From Candidatus Pelagibacter sp. (GTDB taxonomy: Bacteria; Pseudomonadota; Alphaproteobacteria; Pelagibacterales; Pelagibacteraceae): DNA of 56,729 bases. The first letter of the stretch is position 1. The number at the start of each line of letters is the position of its first letter. The stretch lies in the NCBI GenBank assembly GCA_002692055.1, contig NZJW01000013.1, positions 15,483 through 72,211 of the forward strand. Direction: 5' to 3'. Shown here one piece after another: positions 49,422 to 56,729 of this stretch. The translations under genes were made by a program, and so were the position numbers. The notes beneath the pieces are model-generated. The model did not search any database, was not told the DNA's origin, and saw only the letters and a program-made list of their open reading frames with translations.

Positions 49422-50786
49422 TTACTCGGTCTGTTGGAGAGTAGTTTTCAAGTTTTCAATTAATTGGTCAATTTGATTTTTTTCTATTATTAAAGGTGGA
49501 GATAGGGCAATTATATCTCCCGTAACTCTCAATAAAATTTTTTGATTTACAAAAGCTTCACACAAAACATTATAAGCTCTTCTTGTTGGCTTGCTGTCCA
49601 TAGGTTCTAATTCAACCGCTCCTATCAATCCAAGATTTCTAATATCAATTATATTTCTTTCTCCTCTGAGGGAATGTATTGCATCCTCCCAATATTTTGA
49701 TAATTCACTAGCTCTTTGAAATAATCCTTCTTCTTCATATAGTTTCAGAGCTGCCAAAGATGCAGCGCATGCAAGGGGGTGTGCTGAGTAAGTATATCCA
49801 TGAAATAAATCTATCATTTTTTCATCTTTGTTCATAAAAGCATTATAAATTTCATCTTGAACTAAAACTGCCCCCATTGGTACAGTTCCGCTGTTTATAC
49901 CTTTGGCGAGACAGATTAAATCAGGTGTAATATCAAAATATTCGCTTGCAAATGATTTTCCTAAACGACCAAATCCTGTAATGACTTCATCAAAAATTAA
50001 CAAAATTTTATTTTCTACACATTTTGTTTTTATTTTGTTTAAATAATTTTTTGGTGGAATTAATACACCTGTGGAACCCGCTACAGGCTCAACAATAACA
50101 GCTGCAATATTTTCTGAACCATGTTTTTCTATAATGGTATCTAATTCATCTGCTAATTCTTCACCCCATTCAGGTTGTCCTTTCGAATACGCATTTTTCT
50201 TTAAGTTATGAGTATCAGAAAGATGATAAACATCTGGTAGAAATTTACTAAATTGCGCTCTATTTTTTTCAATTCCTCCGACTGAGATCCCGCCAAAATT
50301 TGTTCCATGATATCCCCTGTTGCGACCAATCAATATTCTTTTACTTTCTTCCCCTTTTTCTCTCCAATAGGATAAGGCAATTTTTAAGGCGCTTTCGACC
50401 GCCTCGGATCCCGAATTTCCAAAAAAAACATGATTGAACCCTTTGGGTGCAATTTGCGACAATTTAGAACTTAATTCAAAAGATTTAGGATGACCCATGT
50501 TAAATGCTGGTGCAAAATCAAGTTCCTCTGCTTGCTTTTTTATAGCTTCAACAATTGGTTCTCGACCATGTCCAGCGTTGCAACACCAAAGTCCAGCAAC
50601 TCCATCTAGAATCTGATCACCTGAAGGGGTATAGTAATACATCCCCTTTGCTTTCGAAATTATACGGGGATTTTTTTTAAAGTGTTTATTTGCAGAGAAG
50701 GGCATCCATAGAGATTCCAAATCGTTTGGAAAATCTTGATAACTATTGCCCTTTAATGCTTTCTTTATCGAGCTAGGAACAGACAT
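49422..50786 (-). CDS. Class III aminotransferase, beta-alanine-pyruvate transaminase-like
   Basis: PLP-dependent omega-amino acid transaminase of 454 residues. It resembles beta-alanine-pyruvate aminotransferase over most of its length: LWMPFSANKHFKKNPRII, LDGVAGLWCCNAGHGR, FAPAFNMGHPKSFELS, FFGNSGSEAVESALKIA, IGRNRGYHGTNFGG, LIFDEVITGFGRLG, the PLP Lys in CLAKGINSGTVPMGAV, and HGYTYSAHPLACAA. Taurine, putrescine or other amine donors remain possible. Divergent from groES. Confidence 0.85.
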   Translation of the reverse strand: MSVPSSIKKALKGNSYQDFPNDLESLWMPFSANKHFKKNPRIISKAKGMYYYTPSGDQILDGVAGLWCCNAGHGREPIVEAIKKQAEELDFAPAFNMGHPKSFELSSKLSQIAPKGFNHVFFGNSGSEAVESALKIALSYWREKGEESKRILIGRNRGYHGTNFGGISVGGIEKNRAQFSKFLPDVYHLSDTHNLKKNAYSKGQPEWGEELADELDTIIEKHGSENIAAVIVEPVAGSTGVLIPPKNYLNKIKTKCVENKILLIFDEVITGFGRLGKSFASEYFDITPDLICLAKGINSGTVPMGAVLVQDEIYNAFMNKDEKMIDLFHGYTYSAHPLACAASLAALKLYEEEGLFQRASELSKYWEDAIHSLRGERNIIDIRNLGLIGAVELEPMDSKPTRRAYNVLCEAFVNQKILLRVTGDIIALSPPLIIEKNQIDQLIENLKTTLQQTE

Positions 50787-50855
50787 ATTTGAGGGTATAC
50801 TGCAGAATGGTCAAAAAAACTATATAAACAGTGGTTTTTTTAAGTTATTAAACCC

Positions 50856-50884
50856 CTTGAAAATATTAGTTTAATTGTCATATC
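50856..50884 (+). promoter_or_regulatory. Possible sigma32-type heat-shock promoter of groESL
   Basis: CTTGAAA at 50856-50862 matches the sigma32 -35 element. CATATC at 50879-50884 resembles the alphaproteobacterial -10 (CYTATNT), with 19 bp after CTTG, slightly longer than usual. No CIRCE inverted repeat (TTAGCACTC-N9-GAGTGCTAA) is present in the 125-bp spacer, arguing against HrcA control. Confidence 0.5.
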
Positions 50885-50898
50885 ACCATCATAACGTT

Positions 50899-50906
50899 AA
50901 AGGAGA
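50899..50906 (+). promoter_or_regulatory. Shine-Dalgarno of groES
   Basis: AAAGGAGA lies 5 bp before the groES ATG (50912), a strong ribosome binding site consistent with high expression. Confidence 0.8.
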
Positions 50907-50911
50907 AAATT

Positions 50912-51205
50912 ATGAAATTTAGGCCGTTGCACGATAGAGTATTGGTTGAATCACTTGATAGTGAGGAAAAAACCGCTGGAGGAATAATTATCCCTGACAC
51001 AGCTAAAGAAAAACCCCAAGAGGGTAAAGTTATAGCGGTGGGTCCTGGGTCAAAATCAGAAGATGGAAAAATTACACCAATGGATGTTAAGGTAGGAGAT
51101 CATGTATTATTTGGTAAATGGTCGGGCACTGAAGTAAAGGTTGATGGTAAAGATTATTCAATCATGAAAGAAAGTGACATCATGGGAGTAATTGCAAAGA
51201 AATAA
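50912..51205 (+). CDS. groES: Co-chaperonin GroES
   Basis: Heptameric lid of the GroEL folding chamber. The 97 residues start [16 protein letters not shown], with the mobile loop [18 protein letters not shown], then [10 protein letters not shown] and [18 protein letters not shown]. Standard length. It lies 17 bp before groEL in the usual operon. Confidence 0.98.
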
Positions 51206-51207
51206 TT

Positions 51208-52881
<1,674 letters not shown>

Positions 52882-52906
52882 TCCCCATTATCTCAAACAA
52901 AAATTC

Positions 52907-52938
52907 AAAAAGGGCAGTTTTTACTGCCCTTTTTTTTT
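52907..52938 (+). terminator. Rho-independent terminator after groEL, probably bidirectional
   Basis: The stem AGGGCAGT (52911-52918) pairs with ACTGCCCT (52923-52930) around a TTTT loop and runs into a long T tract (to about 52938). A-rich sequence at 52907-52910 extends the stem. On the minus strand the same hairpin is followed by TTTTTGAATTTTTG, so it can also stop transcription arriving from the hsd genes. Confidence 0.9.
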
Positions 52939-52958
52939 GTCTATACGAAAATCATTAA

Positions 52959-52991
52959 TGATGAAGGAGTGATGAAGGAATGATGAAGGAT
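52959..52991. repeat. Three tandem copies of an 11-bp unit (TGATGAAGGAN)
   Basis: TGATGAAGGAG, TGATGAAGGAA and TGATGAAGGAT follow each other without spacers at 52959-52969, 52970-52980 and 52981-52991. They differ only in the last base. A partial echo (TGGTGATG) follows. The repeat sits between the groEL terminator and the 3' end of the hsd locus, the longest non-coding stretch in the window (52882-53024). Confidence 0.9.
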
Positions 52992-53024
52992 TTGGTGATG
53001 TTATAGTCTCATTTGCAAGTATAA

Positions 53025-55412
53025 CTAATTAGTCCAAATTTTATCTATTCTATCCTTAATATTATATTCAAATTTTTGAAGTAGTTTTTGATTTTGTTCA
53101 ACAATTATTATGTCTTCTTTAAAATTTTTAACAATATCATTTTGTATTTTAATTGAAGGTATATGAATTTTAATTTTTTCAAAATTTGATTTAGATATTT
53201 CTCCAAATGTGCCGCCTGTTGCAATGCTTTTTAAATAATCTTTTAGTAAATAAATTTGAATTGCAATATATTCGGGAATATACTTTTTTTGATTAATTAC
53301 TATTGATTTAAATCCCTGGTTTGTTGCAACCTCTACTTCATTGATTCCAACTCTTCCTATAGTTGCCCTAGTTGAGACTATTACAGAATTAATCGGTATA
53401 ATTTTTGCACTTGATTTTTTAAGTCCTAACCTAGTTATTTTTCTTTTCGAATTTTTAATATAACTAATTGCTTCATTAGATGGTAAATCAACTAATGTTA
53501 ACCATTTTATATCTCCATTCCAATAATCTTCAATTTTTGAATTTGGAGTGCCTCCAGAAATTATTTCTCCAATATCACCAAACTCAACCGATTCCCAACT
53601 TGTATCAACTTTAATCATGGGTTTATAGTTTTCGATAACCTGTCTGCATCCATCGATAATTTTTTGATAACCATTTAATTCTTCAACTATTTGATTTTGG
53701 ATTTCAAGAGGTGGTAGTGGAATTTTTTTCCCCTTTAGTTCTTTAAAATGTCTACTATAACCCAAGTCAGCAATATCTAGGGATTTAATAATGAAATAAA
53801 GATATTTAGGCAAAATATTTGAATTGGGTTGAAGAATTTTAATCCCATCCGCACCAGCAACAAAATCAAAATCAATATATTTAATTATTTTTGTATGGTC
53901 TCCAAAAATTATAACTGGTTTAGATATTTCAATCTTATCTTTAATGTTGTTCCAGTAACCTGCAATAGGTTTGTTTGACTGGTCAATAATCGGAATTTTA
54001 CCTTCTTTTAAAAAGTTTTTGCTATTTATTTTTATTTTTGGAGTCACTACCTCAAAAGTATCAATTATTTTTATTACTTCAAATTTTGAATCAATTTTTT
54101 TAGTAATAGAATATTTTGTTGATGAAAATATAAAATTTTCATCTGATAAAATTTTACTTTTATCAACCAAAAAACAATTTTTACTTTCTTTATTACTTTT
54201 AATAAAATCTAATATCTGAGGTATATCATTTTCTTTAATTTTATTTCTTTGTGCTCCCAGACTAAAACCATCATTGACTACATTGGCAAAAAATACATCA
54301 TTATTTTTTTTATTTTTTTCTTTGTCTAATATTAGAATTGATGTTTTTACACCAGAGTATGGTTGAAACACACCAGCAGGAAGAGAAATTATACCAATTA
54401 AAGAAGTTTCAATAAGTCTTTTCCTTAATTGTTTATACGCAGTTCCAGTTTGAAATATAATACCTTCAGGAACAATAATTCCGGCACGACCTTTAGGTTT
54501 TAAATGTTCATTAATATAATCAACAAATAATACTTCTGCTTTTGTAGACTTAACTCCAAATCTATTATGAGGAGTTATCCCGCCTTTTGGAGAAAAGAAT
54601 GGAGGGTTTGCAAGTATCACATCAAAATAATCGTTCCATCTGTCCTCACTTGAAAGAGTATCATACTCATTAATTTTAGGATTGGTAAATTTGTGTAAGT
54701 ACATATTCACTAAAGACATTTTCACCATATCAGGAGAAATATCGTAACCATTTAAGTTCTCACCAATTTTTTTTCTATCAGATGCAGTCAGTCCATCTCC
54801 TAAATTCTTTTTAGTATTTTGATTTAAAATACATTTGTAAGAACTAATTAAAAAACCTGCAGTACCACAAGCAGGGTCTAGTATTGTTTCATTTTTTTGA
54901 GGATTAACTATCTCTGTGATAAAATCAATTATATGTCTAGGTGTTCTAAACTGACCTGCATCACCTTGGGAACCCATGAAAGATAGCAAATATTCAAATG
55001 CATCACCAAGTTTTTCTGAATGAGAATAATGAAATTCATTAATTTCTTTTAAAAACATATTTAATGTTGAAGGATCTTTAAATGGAAGAAATGAATTTTT
55101 GAATATCTCTCTAAATAACTCAGGAAGATTTTCATTATTATACATTTGTTCAATTGCCTCTGAATAGAGTTTGATTTTTTCAACACCACTTGTTTTAGTA
55201 TCCATCAAATTCTTCCAAGAATATTTTTCAAACTTGCCTGAAAAGTAAGTTGATTTACCGCCCATTGATACAGATTGTTCATCCATATCATTCATAAACT
55301 TATAAATTAGACCATTTGTGATTTGTTCAACTTGTGCTTTTGGGTCTGGTAATTTTCCAACTAATATTTGTCTTAAAGTATTAATTCTCTTCTTAGTTAC
55401 ATCGTCAAGCAT
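53025..55412 (-). CDS. Type I restriction-modification fused methyltransferase-specificity protein (HsdM-HsdS)
   Basis: A single 795-residue chain joins both modification functions. Residues 1-440 are HsdM: helical N-terminal domain, SAM motif DPACGTAGF (179-187) and catalytic NPPF (269-272) for N6-adenine methylation. Residues 445-795 resemble HsdS: TRD1 (about 445-565), the spacer motif IPLPPLEIQNQIVEEL (564-579) with a helix, TRD2 (about 605-745) starting WESVEFGDIGEIISGGTPNS, and a second helix after IHIPSIKIQNDIVKNF. Usually M and S are separate genes. It overlaps hsdR by 8 bp. Confidence 0.9.
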   Translation of the reverse strand: MLDDVTKKRINTLRQILVGKLPDPKAQVEQITNGLIYKFMNDMDEQSVSMGGKSTYFSGKFEKYSWKNLMDTKTSGVEKIKLYSEAIEQMYNNENLPELFREIFKNSFLPFKDPSTLNMFLKEINEFHYSHSEKLGDAFEYLLSFMGSQGDAGQFRTPRHIIDFITEIVNPQKNETILDPACGTAGFLISSYKCILNQNTKKNLGDGLTASDRKKIGENLNGYDISPDMVKMSLVNMYLHKFTNPKINEYDTLSSEDRWNDYFDVILANPPFFSPKGGITPHNRFGVKSTKAEVLFVDYINEHLKPKGRAGIIVPEGIIFQTGTAYKQLRKRLIETSLIGIISLPAGVFQPYSGVKTSILILDKEKNKKNNDVFFANVVNDGFSLGAQRNKIKENDIPQILDFIKSNKESKNCFLVDKSKILSDENFIFSSTKYSITKKIDSKFEVIKIIDTFEVVTPKIKINSKNFLKEGKIPIIDQSNKPIAGYWNNIKDKIEISKPVIIFGDHTKIIKYIDFDFVAGADGIKILQPNSNILPKYLYFIIKSLDIADLGYSRHFKELKGKKIPLPPLEIQNQIVEELNGYQKIIDGCRQVIENYKPMIKVDTSWESVEFGDIGEIISGGTPNSKIEDYWNGDIKWLTLVDLPSNEAISYIKNSKRKITRLGLKKSSAKIIPINSVIVSTRATIGRVGINEVEVATNQGFKSIVINQKKYIPEYIAIQIYLLKDYLKSIATGGTFGEISKSNFEKIKIHIPSIKIQNDIVKNFKEDIIIVEQNQKLLQKFEYNIKDRIDKIWTN

Positions 55413-56729
55413 TAATAAATCTTTCTAAATTAATATTTTCTTTAACATAGGTTGGTATCTTAATTCTTAAATCTTCTGGTAATTTAAAGAAGTAATCTCC
55501 AGATGGATGTACATTTAGTTCTGCATATTTGCCACTATCAATTTTTTCTCTAAAATCTTTGTCAGTTACATACGCTTCAAACACTTGTTTGACCGCATTA
55601 AATGAGTTTTCATCAGGTTTAAATTTATCATCAAATTTATCAAACTCTACCTCAAGTATTTCATCTTTATTTTTTATTTTTGAGATAAAACCAAATGTAT
55701 ATAGCAGTAAGTCTTTGATTGAGATATTTACATCAAGTCCTAATGCTTCTCTTAATCTTTCAAGTGAATATGATTTTTTAAGATACTTTTCTTTAAAGTA
55801 TTCTTCTGCATCATTAAAATTCTGATTTTCAATCATTTGTTTAAGAGAATTAAATGATTGTTTATCTTTAAAAAATTCCTCTTTGAAAGATTTATATAAA
55901 TCTCTATCAATTCTCATACCTGCCTGAGGAATGTTTATTTCTTCTGTTTTTTGAACTGGGTCTATATCTTTATTAAATACTTCTTCTGGTCTTGGTTTTG
56001 TTCCACCTTTGCCTTCTCCTCCCTCTACAGGTAGTTTTAATACTTGGTCATAATCAAACTCTTCTTCAAAATATTGATAGTTTTTAAAATAATCAAAAAG
56101 TTTAAATGATGATTTAATTGAATTTATTGTTTTAGGTATTTGATTTTTATCAATCCAACACTCCTTAAAATCAAACATTCTAGTTCCTCTTCCCTTCATC
56201 TGAATAAATTCAGTAGGAGAAAACACGGGTCTAAACAAACAAATATTCAATAAATCTTTACAATCATATCCCGTAGACATCATCCCAACTGTTACACAAA
56301 CTCTTGCTTTTGAAGTTTTATAAAATTCATTAATTGGTGAATTTCCTCTTAAATTATTATTTTTAAAATCAATTGTCATTTGTTGAGGATCTGGTTTTGT
56401 AATTCCTGAAGTAACTTGAATTGCGAAATCAGATTGGTACTGACCAGGAAAATACTTTTCAGCAAGTTCGTTGAGAATTTCTGTTATCCTTTCTGCATGT
56501 TTTTGTGAAACACAAAAAACTAAGGTCTTACCAATTTCATTTGAAAAAGGGTCTCTTTCTGCACTTTTAATAAATGCATCACAAAAAGATAAATTTGTTT
56601 CTTTTGACTTAAATTTCCGTTCATAATCTTTTTTAAAAAAAGTTTGTTCTTCTTCTATATCTTTTCCATCTTTGTCCACACCTTTGAATGTTAATCCTTC
56701 TCTACTCATCATATCTGCTGAAAGTCCAG
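55405..56729 (-). CDS. hsdR: Type I restriction enzyme R subunit, C-terminal part (cut by window edge)
   Basis: The frame is open from the right edge, so the N-terminal nuclease and first helicase domain lie outside. The visible 440 or so residues carry the second RecA-like helicase domain: KTLVFCVSQKHAERI, VTVGMMSTGYDCKDL and FIQMKGRGTRMF (motif VI). The remainder, ending LPEDLRIKIPTYVKENINLERF, resembles the EcoEI-type HsdR C-terminal domain that contacts the M-S complex. The downstream hsdMS fusion confirms type I. Confidence 0.9.
   Translation of the reverse strand, partial: GLSADMMSREGLTFKGVDKDGKDIEEEQTFFKKDYERKFKSKETNLSFCDAFIKSAERDPFSNEIGKTLVFCVSQKHAERITEILNELAEKYFPGQYQSDFAIQVTSGITKPDPQQMTIDFKNNNLRGNSPINEFYKTSKARVCVTVGMMSTGYDCKDLLNICLFRPVFSPTEFIQMKGRGTRMFDFKECWIDKNQIPKTINSIKSSFKLFDYFKNYQYFEEEFDYDQVLKLPVEGGEGKGGTKPRPEEVFNKDIDPVQKTEEINIPQAGMRIDRDLYKSFKEEFFKDKQSFNSLKQMIENQNFNDAEEYFKEKYLKKSYSLERLREALGLDVNISIKDLLLYTFGFISKIKNKDEILEVEFDKFDDKFKPDENSFNAVKQVFEAYVTDKDFREKIDSGKYAELNVHPSGDYFFKLPEDLRIKIPTYVKENINLERFINA

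What the first reader, a model, noticed from the sequence alone, without database searches (positions are those of the whole stretch)
53025..56729. HsdM and HsdS fused into one chain in a type I R-M locus
The methyltransferase and a two-TRD specificity module form one 795-residue protein while hsdR stays separate. A canonical M2S complex needs two M per S, so a 1:1 fusion forces another assembly, for example a dimer of fusions or use of a proteolytic product. The S part is compact (about 350 residues) but keeps both repeats and both helices. R-M systems are also uncommon in highly streamlined marine alphaproteobacteria.
Basis: partly seen in the sequence, partly recalled or inferred. Interest (0 to 1): 0.5.

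Follow-up and report, generated by a model that had tools for sequence, protein, structure and literature searches.

The report
Natural HsdM–HsdS fusion restriction-modification system
A tiny-genome ocean bacterium carries a DNA-defence enzyme whose DNA-marking and sequence-reading parts are one protein; the same arrangement turns up across very distant microbes, so it is a real variant of a known defence system rather than a sequencing mistake.

Summary
Confirmed: window 53025-55412(-) encodes one intact 795-residue chain, an N6-adenine methyltransferase (M) plus a two-TRD specificity part (S), overlapping a separate hsdR by 8 nt; hsdR is cut off by the contig end. It is not an assembly error: the fusion is visible in five other SAR11 genomes (one gene cut by a contig end) and in records of many bacterial phyla and two archaeal MAGs. 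In 395 Bacteroidota genomes, all 20 listed genes whose M is at least 53% identical lie in fused-length frames; all 42 listed, more distant matches have free-M-length frames. On an M tree the 101 fused rows need one change (support 85). New points: fused members lack the roughly 40-residue C-terminal M tail, TRD1 starting 9-13 residues after M's last motif; TRDs shuffle between slots; one-TRD forms arose repeatedly. In PacII that tail docks M onto S, so a free M is an unlikely partner here. I favour homo-oligomers of the intact fusion, as reported for single-chain TstI/AloI. The architecture is the 'Type IMS' form engineered from EcoKI in 2012; I saw no paper describing a natural two-TRD example in my searches.

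The parts
53025..55412 (-). hsdMS: fused type I methyltransferase + two-TRD specificity protein, 795 aa (with stop)
54111..55412 (-). M part, residues 1-434 (N-terminal helical domain + N6_Mtase catalytic domain, NPPF motif at 269-272); ends without the M C-terminal tail
53724..54080 (-). TRD1, residues 445-563, hypervariable (mean 16% identity for 446-563 among 5 SAR11 homologues)
53595..53723 (-). CR1, residues 564-606, conserved; helix 569-595
53160..53594 (-). TRD2, residues 607-751, hypervariable (mean 18% identity for 608-750)
53028..53159 (-). CR2, residues 752-795; helix 754-792
55405..56727 (-). hsdR, C-terminal 440 aa only (cut by contig end); the complete homologue in L020 is 830 aa with HSDR_N_2 nuclease and ResIII motor domains
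55405..55412 (-). 8-nt overlap of hsdR stop and hsdMS start, also in L005, L019, L020, L028 (SAR11) and L023, L024 (SAR86); suggests one operon with coupled translation (inference)

Best explanation
A two-gene (hsdR, hsdMS) type I-like R-M system from a clade in which the C-terminal S-docking tail of HsdM was replaced by the S polypeptide itself. Shown: the fusion, its conservation, the missing tail, TRD shuffling between slots, recurrent one-TRD forms, hsdR next door. Inferred: the M domain works in cis with the TRD1 next to it; the second M needed for the other half-site comes from a second intact fusion chain, so the working unit is a homo-oligomer (2 MS, possibly a dimer of dimers) that recruits HsdR, methylates adenine on both strands of a bipartite site, and translocates and cuts unmodified DNA.
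For: The fused M is the only close M copy: 1 match in the own genome (PF02384 adds only a 22.9-bit match in a 302-aa frame); in 20 host genomes 21 fused genes at 57-92% identity, every other listed match 41% or less except a 66-aa fragment at 63%; 20 of 20 close genes in the Bacteroidota sample have fused-length frames. No free M or S ORF in the held flanks of 79 of 80 loci; the exception, L066, has one weak S-like hit. In 87 of 87 aligned fusions TRD1 starts 9-13 residues after the last M motif, against tails of 36-113 residues in 18 of 18 free M. In PacII the two M tails and CR1/CR2 form the four-helix bundle, and deleting both tails abolishes assembly (PMC9613975 passages). One-TRD members (5 of 100 classified rows) need 5 changes on the M tree, so M-TRD-CR looks like the unit that pairs. 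TRDs are shared between slots: 102 of 385 related TRD pairs are cross-slot. Precedents: TstI and AloI homotetramers; engineered Sau MSfus active without added M and perhaps dimeric, its half-S fusion dimerises.
Against: No biochemistry. AF2 pTM is only 0.56, so M-S placement is not fixed, and no dimer could be modelled. Engineered EcoKI fusion needed added M in vitro, and Sau MSfus co-purified with a clipped M fragment. One-TRD genes might be dead. Cross-slot TRD sharing could also occur without a second M. A 2:2 complex leaves one S part spare. The window's own PADLOC M match runs to profile position 478 of 491, i.e. into the tail region, unlike the four relatives tested.
Confidence: 0.55

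Rival explanations
1. Truncation or proteolysis of the fusion supplies free M, giving a conventional M2S plus R2, as proposed for the engineered EcoKI fusion.
For: EcoKI MSFusion needed added HsdM in vitro yet worked in vivo without an hsdM gene (PMC3510504); Sau MSfus carried a clipped fragment of M plus about half of TRD1.
Against: A free M of this clade would lack the tail that anchors M to S. No separate internal start signal was seen in the window; at the M/S junction 6 of 87 genes show SD+start against 6, 2 and 5 in control stretches, though the TRD2 start shows 22 of 87 (such starts would yield S pieces, not M). No free M gene above 41% identity in 20 host genomes apart from a 66-aa fragment.
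Confidence: 0.15
2. One M per S: a monomeric fusion that methylates both halves one after the other, or only one strand as some asymmetric single-chain enzymes do.
For: M.TaqI, CamA, BpuSI and Type ISP LlaGI chains, with MTase followed by TRD, are among the VIA matches; MmeI-type enzymes methylate one strand (PMC3874165 passage); TstI transfers one methyl at a time.
Against: Two TRDs are kept in 95 of 100 classified fused rows (the best-80 sample favours full length), and slot 2 draws on the same TRD pool as slot 1, which fits a methylated second half-site.
Confidence: 0.25
3. Artefact: a lost stop or start joined two genes in this assembly.
For: The assembly is fragmented (21 contigs, 86% complete). 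One relative (L014) does have a stop inside the gene.
Against: Full-length homologous fusions at 57-62% identity in SAR11 and in other phyla; no free-M form seen within the clade.
Confidence: 0.01

Closest known systems
Engineered EcoKI MSFusion, proposed 'Type IMS' (Roberts 2012, PMC3510504)
   Same: HsdM and two-TRD HsdS in one chain, separate HsdR
   Different: Engineered by frameshift removal, so the entire HsdM including its tail is joined to S; the natural clade has no M tail
Sau CC398 MSfus / M-half-S fusion (PMC6158711)
   Same: Engineered two-TRD and one-TRD M-S fusions, active with HsdR; the one-TRD form dimerises and reads a palindrome
   Different: Engineered from separate genes, entire M and S ORFs joined in MSfus
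Vibrio vulnificus YJ016 intact MTase, PDB 7eew
   Same: Natural single chain of 638 aa with M plus an S-type region; VIA Z 31.6 over model 6-795 (rmsd 27, 580 aligned) and Z 30.8 to the one-TRD L056 model (rmsd 22, 549 aligned)
   Different: Room for one TRD only, by its length; its paper was not held, and that it keeps an M tail helix and dimerises is recalled
TstI / AloI (Type IIB single chain)
   Same: One M fused 1:1 to a two-TRD S; homotetramer (PMC4027205 passages)
   Different: Nuclease on the same chain, cuts beside the site; absence of an ATP motor is recalled
Canonical type I M2S, e.g. PacII, EcoR124I, EcoKI
   Same: M and S folds, TRD-CR-TRD-CR layout, HsdR motor-nuclease
   Different: Separate M with C-terminal tail, M2S stoichiometry
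Type ISP (LlaGI, LlaBIII) and Type IIG (BpuSI)
   Same: MTase followed by a TRD in one chain
   Different: Nuclease (and motor in ISP) on the same chain, single TRD
PADLOC MTase_I profile PDLC03019 (932 positions)
   Same: Its positions 729-894 match the window's S part 602-769 (147 bits over two stretches), so long M-S type proteins seem to be in that database already (inference)
   Different: The clade's M part matches the free-M profile PDLC03021 better (308 bits)

Membership tests
Type IMS (name proposed for engineered fusions, PMC3510504) | HsdM and HsdS in one chain, with one or two TRDs | tested here: met
   definition read
Type IMS (name proposed for engineered fusions, PMC3510504) | Separate HsdR subunit | tested here: met
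   Partial hsdR in window; complete R in relatives such as L020; 85 of 89 loci have R upstream on the same strand
Type IMS (name proposed for engineered fusions, PMC3510504) | Restricts and modifies DNA | not testable with these tools
   Conserved catalytic motif and nuclease/motor domains only
Canonical type I R-M | Separate M and S polypeptides | tested here: not met
Canonical type I R-M | M C-terminal tail joining the S four-helix bundle | tested here: not met
   87 of 87 aligned fusions, the window included, have 9-13 residues between the last M motif and TRD1; role of the tail; the window's PADLOC match to profile position 478 is a contrary hint
Canonical type I R-M | R2M2S stoichiometry | not testable with these tools
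   No complex prediction available
Type IIB single chain (TstI/AloI) | Nuclease, M and S in one polypeptide | tested here: not met
   The 795-aa chain begins with the M N-terminal domain (VIA alignment to M subunits from residue 1-2); hsdR is a separate ORF
Type ISP | Nuclease, ATP motor, M and one TRD in one polypeptide | tested here: not met
   Motor is on a separate ORF; two TRDs

The most novel reading that the evidence does not exclude
The clade is a natural branch of type I R-M that dropped the M tail and assembles as a tail-less 2:2 homodimer whose four CR helices (two per chain) replace the canonical two-CR plus two-M-tail bundle, with M supplied in cis at TRD1 and in trans at TRD2; one-TRD members are its symmetric, palindrome-reading versions, and the two states interconvert by recombination between CR1 and CR2.
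Probability: 0.25. Interest if true: 0.65.

Novelty: new variant of a known kind. Interest (0 to 1): 0.48.

Why it matters
An architecture that was engineered and named as an evolutionary intermediate turns out to exist widely in nature, with a structural change (no M tail) that the engineered versions lack. It offers a natural set of one-TRD and two-TRD fusions with near-identical M parts, so the question of how a 1:1 M-S chain methylates both half-sites becomes directly testable. Annotation pipelines that look for separate M and S genes may misread these loci.

Tried and rejected
Assembly artefact: rejected by relatives. A free M elsewhere in the genome: one protein-level match in the own genome, which is 86% complete, plus a 22.9-bit PF02384 match in a 302-aa frame. 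Internal translation start making free S or half-S: no signal in the window and none above control at the junction; the TRD2 start is above control (22 of 87 against 6, 2 and 5), perhaps because the conserved W-x-M-V-E-L-G peptide is coded by SD-like bases, not followed further. A PADLOC profile made for the clade: the best match is a free-M profile (only the best 25 of 117 families were shown). A second TRD hidden downstream of the one-TRD gene L056: translation and ORFs show none; the S-type profile hit no separate S ORF in L124, L128 or L129 (those loci hold only about 0.7-0.8 kb beyond the gene). A conserved accessory third gene: only patchy families, and none of the SAR11 loci was in the two clusters named below. 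Close relatives in phages: 40 records at E<=1e-30, the 10 listed at 29% identity. Rfam: no match at gathering score in 50000-56729. AF2 could not fix M-S placement (pTM 0.56 and 0.67). Recognition sequence: not predicted, no REBASE here. Another M lineage also carries a fusion: L149 (734 aa) has N6_Mtase plus a Methylase_S match exactly at the Pfam cut-off beside an EcoEI_R_C-type hsdR, so 'one origin' applies to this clade only.

Limits of the counts. In one search at most 4 candidates per genome were scored. Of the 42 free-length matches, 11 were fetched: all 11 have free M with a tail, and a separate S ORF was found in 10 of them, not in L142, where only about 1.4 kb downstream was held. 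The M tree is a 'quick' tree with long free rows; the fused/free split has support 85 and is drawn open, and some forks around one-TRD rows are open too, so '5 changes' is a parsimony count. Organism names are record titles, mostly MAGs.
Full report
Observation. The minus-strand ORF 53025-55412 encodes 795 residues without a stop. Pfam finds N6_Mtase at 133-440 and two Methylase_S stretches; a PADLOC specificity profile spans 436-760. The neighbour at 55405-56727 carries Helicase_C and matches type I R profiles; it is only 440 aa because the contig ends at the window edge. The two ORFs overlap by 8 nt. AF2 on an 80-row alignment gave pLDDT 89, pTM 0.56, with long helices at 569-595 and 754-792. 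VIA aligns residues 2-438 to a type I M protein (2okc, Z 35.5, rmsd 4.3, 403 aligned) and 436-795 to a type I S protein (1yf2, Z 28.1, rmsd 3.6, 358 aligned).

Not an artefact. In the family, 10 of 297 genomes have a match at E<=1e-20. Four belong to this subfamily: the window; G237 (789 aa, complete); G185, cut by a contig end after M, TRD1 and CR1; and G207, where only the first 227 residues of M are held, so its fusion cannot be seen. The other six match at 29-31% and show free M with a separate S next to it. In the 87-row alignment two-TRD fusions are 788-881 aa, one is 1029. A relative with a stop inside the gene exists (G420/L014; its hsdR is split too) and looks degraded or mis-assembled.

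The fusion marks a clade. With an M-only query, 395 genomes of the phylum of a Cyclobacteriaceae genome gave 20 genes at 53-67% identity, all in open frames of 624-881 aa, and 42 matches at 33-44% identity, all in frames of 490-573 aa (one of the 20 is the centre genome, chosen because it has the fusion; at most 4 candidates per genome were scored). Of the 42, 11 were fetched: all have free M, and 10 a separate S ORF. In 20 genomes that host fusions, the 21 close genes (57-92%) are all in frames of at least 797 aa; everything else listed is 41% or less, except one 66-aa fragment at 63%. An M-domain tree of 101 fused and 17 free rows needs one fused/free change, support 85, 0 of 500 shuffles as low (quick method, long free branches, fork drawn open). 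The window groups with the SAR11 and then the SAR86 members (starred sets of 5 and 7 rows). Another M lineage appears to have its own fusion (L149).

Operon. 85 of 89 loci have an R ORF upstream on the same strand; 56 of the 85 gaps are -11 to +53 nt, 3 are 66-93 and 26 exceed 200 nt; 21 loci have an intervening ORF of 100 aa or more. One gene counts twice here (L016, L018). The 4 without R are three contig-end cases (L037, L048, L092) and L033. Complete R proteins carry an HSDR_N-type nuclease and ResIII motor domain in the two tested (L020, L004). No free M or S ORF was found in the held flanks (up to 7 kb) of L019-L098 apart from a weak S-like hit in L066; the same profiles found the free S in all 7 canonical control loci.

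The M tail is gone. In 87 of 87 aligned fusions, 9-13 residues separate the conserved Y434 column from the first TRD1 strand; in 18 of 18 free M proteins 36-113 residues follow the equivalent motif (sequences). The PADLOC free-M profile PDLC03021 matches two free M to its positions 488 and 490 of 491, but four other fusions only to 423-461; the window's own match reaches 478, which is a contrary hint. In PacII the tails of both M subunits and CR1/CR2 form the four-helix bundle, and deleting both tails abolishes assembly (PMC9613975, passages). The engineered EcoKI and Sau fusions joined the whole M ORF to S (PMC3510504: Results read, methods passage; PMC6158711 passages). So the natural clade is not simply a removed frameshift: TRD1 took the place of the tail.

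Specificity part. Among five SAR11 fusions mean identity is 82% for M, 16% for TRD1, 61% for CR1, 18% for TRD2 and 38% for CR2, as expected for an R-M system that switches targets. Across the family 385 TRD pairs reach 45% identity over 80 residues or more: 176 slot1-slot1, 107 slot2-slot2, 102 cross-slot. The window's TRD1 resembles the only TRD of the one-TRD protein L056 (45%). Five one-TRD members (L004 677 aa, L056 625, L124 621, L128 649, L129 643; one Methylase_S stretch by Pfam in the first four; L129 judged by length and sequence) need five changes on the M tree; L128 and L129 lie among two-TRD-length genes on very short M branches yet carry different TRDs. L056's single helix reads like the start of CR1 joined to the end of CR2, suggesting recombination between the two repeats (inference).

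How it works. Shown: the parts and their conservation. Inferred: M acts in cis with TRD1; a second M is needed for the TRD2 half; since no free M gene was found and a free M would lack its dock, a second intact chain is the best candidate. Support by analogy: TstI is a homotetramer, as seen before with AloI (PMC4027205 passages); Sau MSfus worked without added M and eluted at a mass that may indicate a dimer, though a clipped M fragment was present. Against: EcoKI MSFusion needed added M in vitro. AF2 does not fix M-S placement. I put 0.55 on homo-oligomers of the intact fusion, 0.25 on a monomer, 0.15 on free M by truncation.

Known or new. 'Type IMS' was proposed for the engineered EcoKI fusion, to cover one or two TRDs with a separate HsdR. 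A natural single-chain MTase is solved (7eew, V. vulnificus; title and alignment seen; its paper was not held, and its dimeric one-TRD form is recalled). A long PADLOC MTase_I profile (PDLC03019) already reaches into an S-like region. In the listings of my paper searches and the passages I read, I saw no description of a natural two-TRD fusion with separate hsdR; only open-licence papers are held, most listed papers were not opened, and REBASE may list such genes.

Insertion site. The locus abuts the groEL 3' end. In same-genus genomes without it, G009 and G060 have groEL and hisG 44 nt apart; G022 has one FkbM-type gene between them, G047 three ORFs including a MORN protein; in G277 a canonical type I system (M, S, R) follows the groEL 3' end and in L020 another fused R-MS faces it (HisG by Pfam in G009, by similarity in the others). 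The window's contig ends inside hsdR, so its far flank is unseen.

Noticed in passing
window 52881-53025; L020, L110, L116-L119: The groEL 3' side looks like a cargo hotspot in SAR11: empty groEL/hisG junction in two relatives, other genes in two, a canonical type I system in G277 and fused R-MS in the window and in L020.
   Followed up: partly
window 52912-52938: Hairpin GGGCAGT...ACTGCCC followed by a T run between the convergent groEL and hsdMS genes, a likely terminator (sequence read).
   Followed up: no
L016:3340-4062, L025, L003, L068, L082 and others (13 in the cluster): A recurrent ORF, mostly 240-257 aa, directly downstream of hsdMS, with no Pfam match in the three members tested; in a second cluster of 5 the downstream ORF is a DUF6602-type protein (one tested).
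   Followed up: partly
L088, L097, L047, L057 and others, between hsdR and hsdMS: Inserted ORFs between R and MS in 21 loci; KilA-N and Bro-N domain proteins in the two tested by Pfam (L097, L047).
   Followed up: partly
L004:5001-7034 (E. coli IncF plasmid): A one-TRD M-S fusion with its own hsdR; 52 of 56 plasmid records match at the same 57.3% M identity, mostly E. coli; a tractable laboratory relative.
   Followed up: partly
L149:2014-4218: An apparently independent M-S fusion (734 aa) with an EcoEI_R_C-type hsdR in a Latescibacteria genome that also has two fusions of this clade.
   Followed up: partly
L066:6478-8715: A 745-aa ORF next to a fused R-MS locus with weak methylase and S-like similarity.
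   Followed up: no
Acinetobacter phages, e.g. OQ101248.1 51736-53289: Phage genes matching query residues 103-607 (M plus TRD1) at 29% identity, possibly phage-borne M-TRD proteins.
   Followed up: no
L109:9009-9341 and L110:105-437: What looks like the same 110-aa gene lies next to the fused system in G237 and near the canonical type I system in G277.
   Followed up: no
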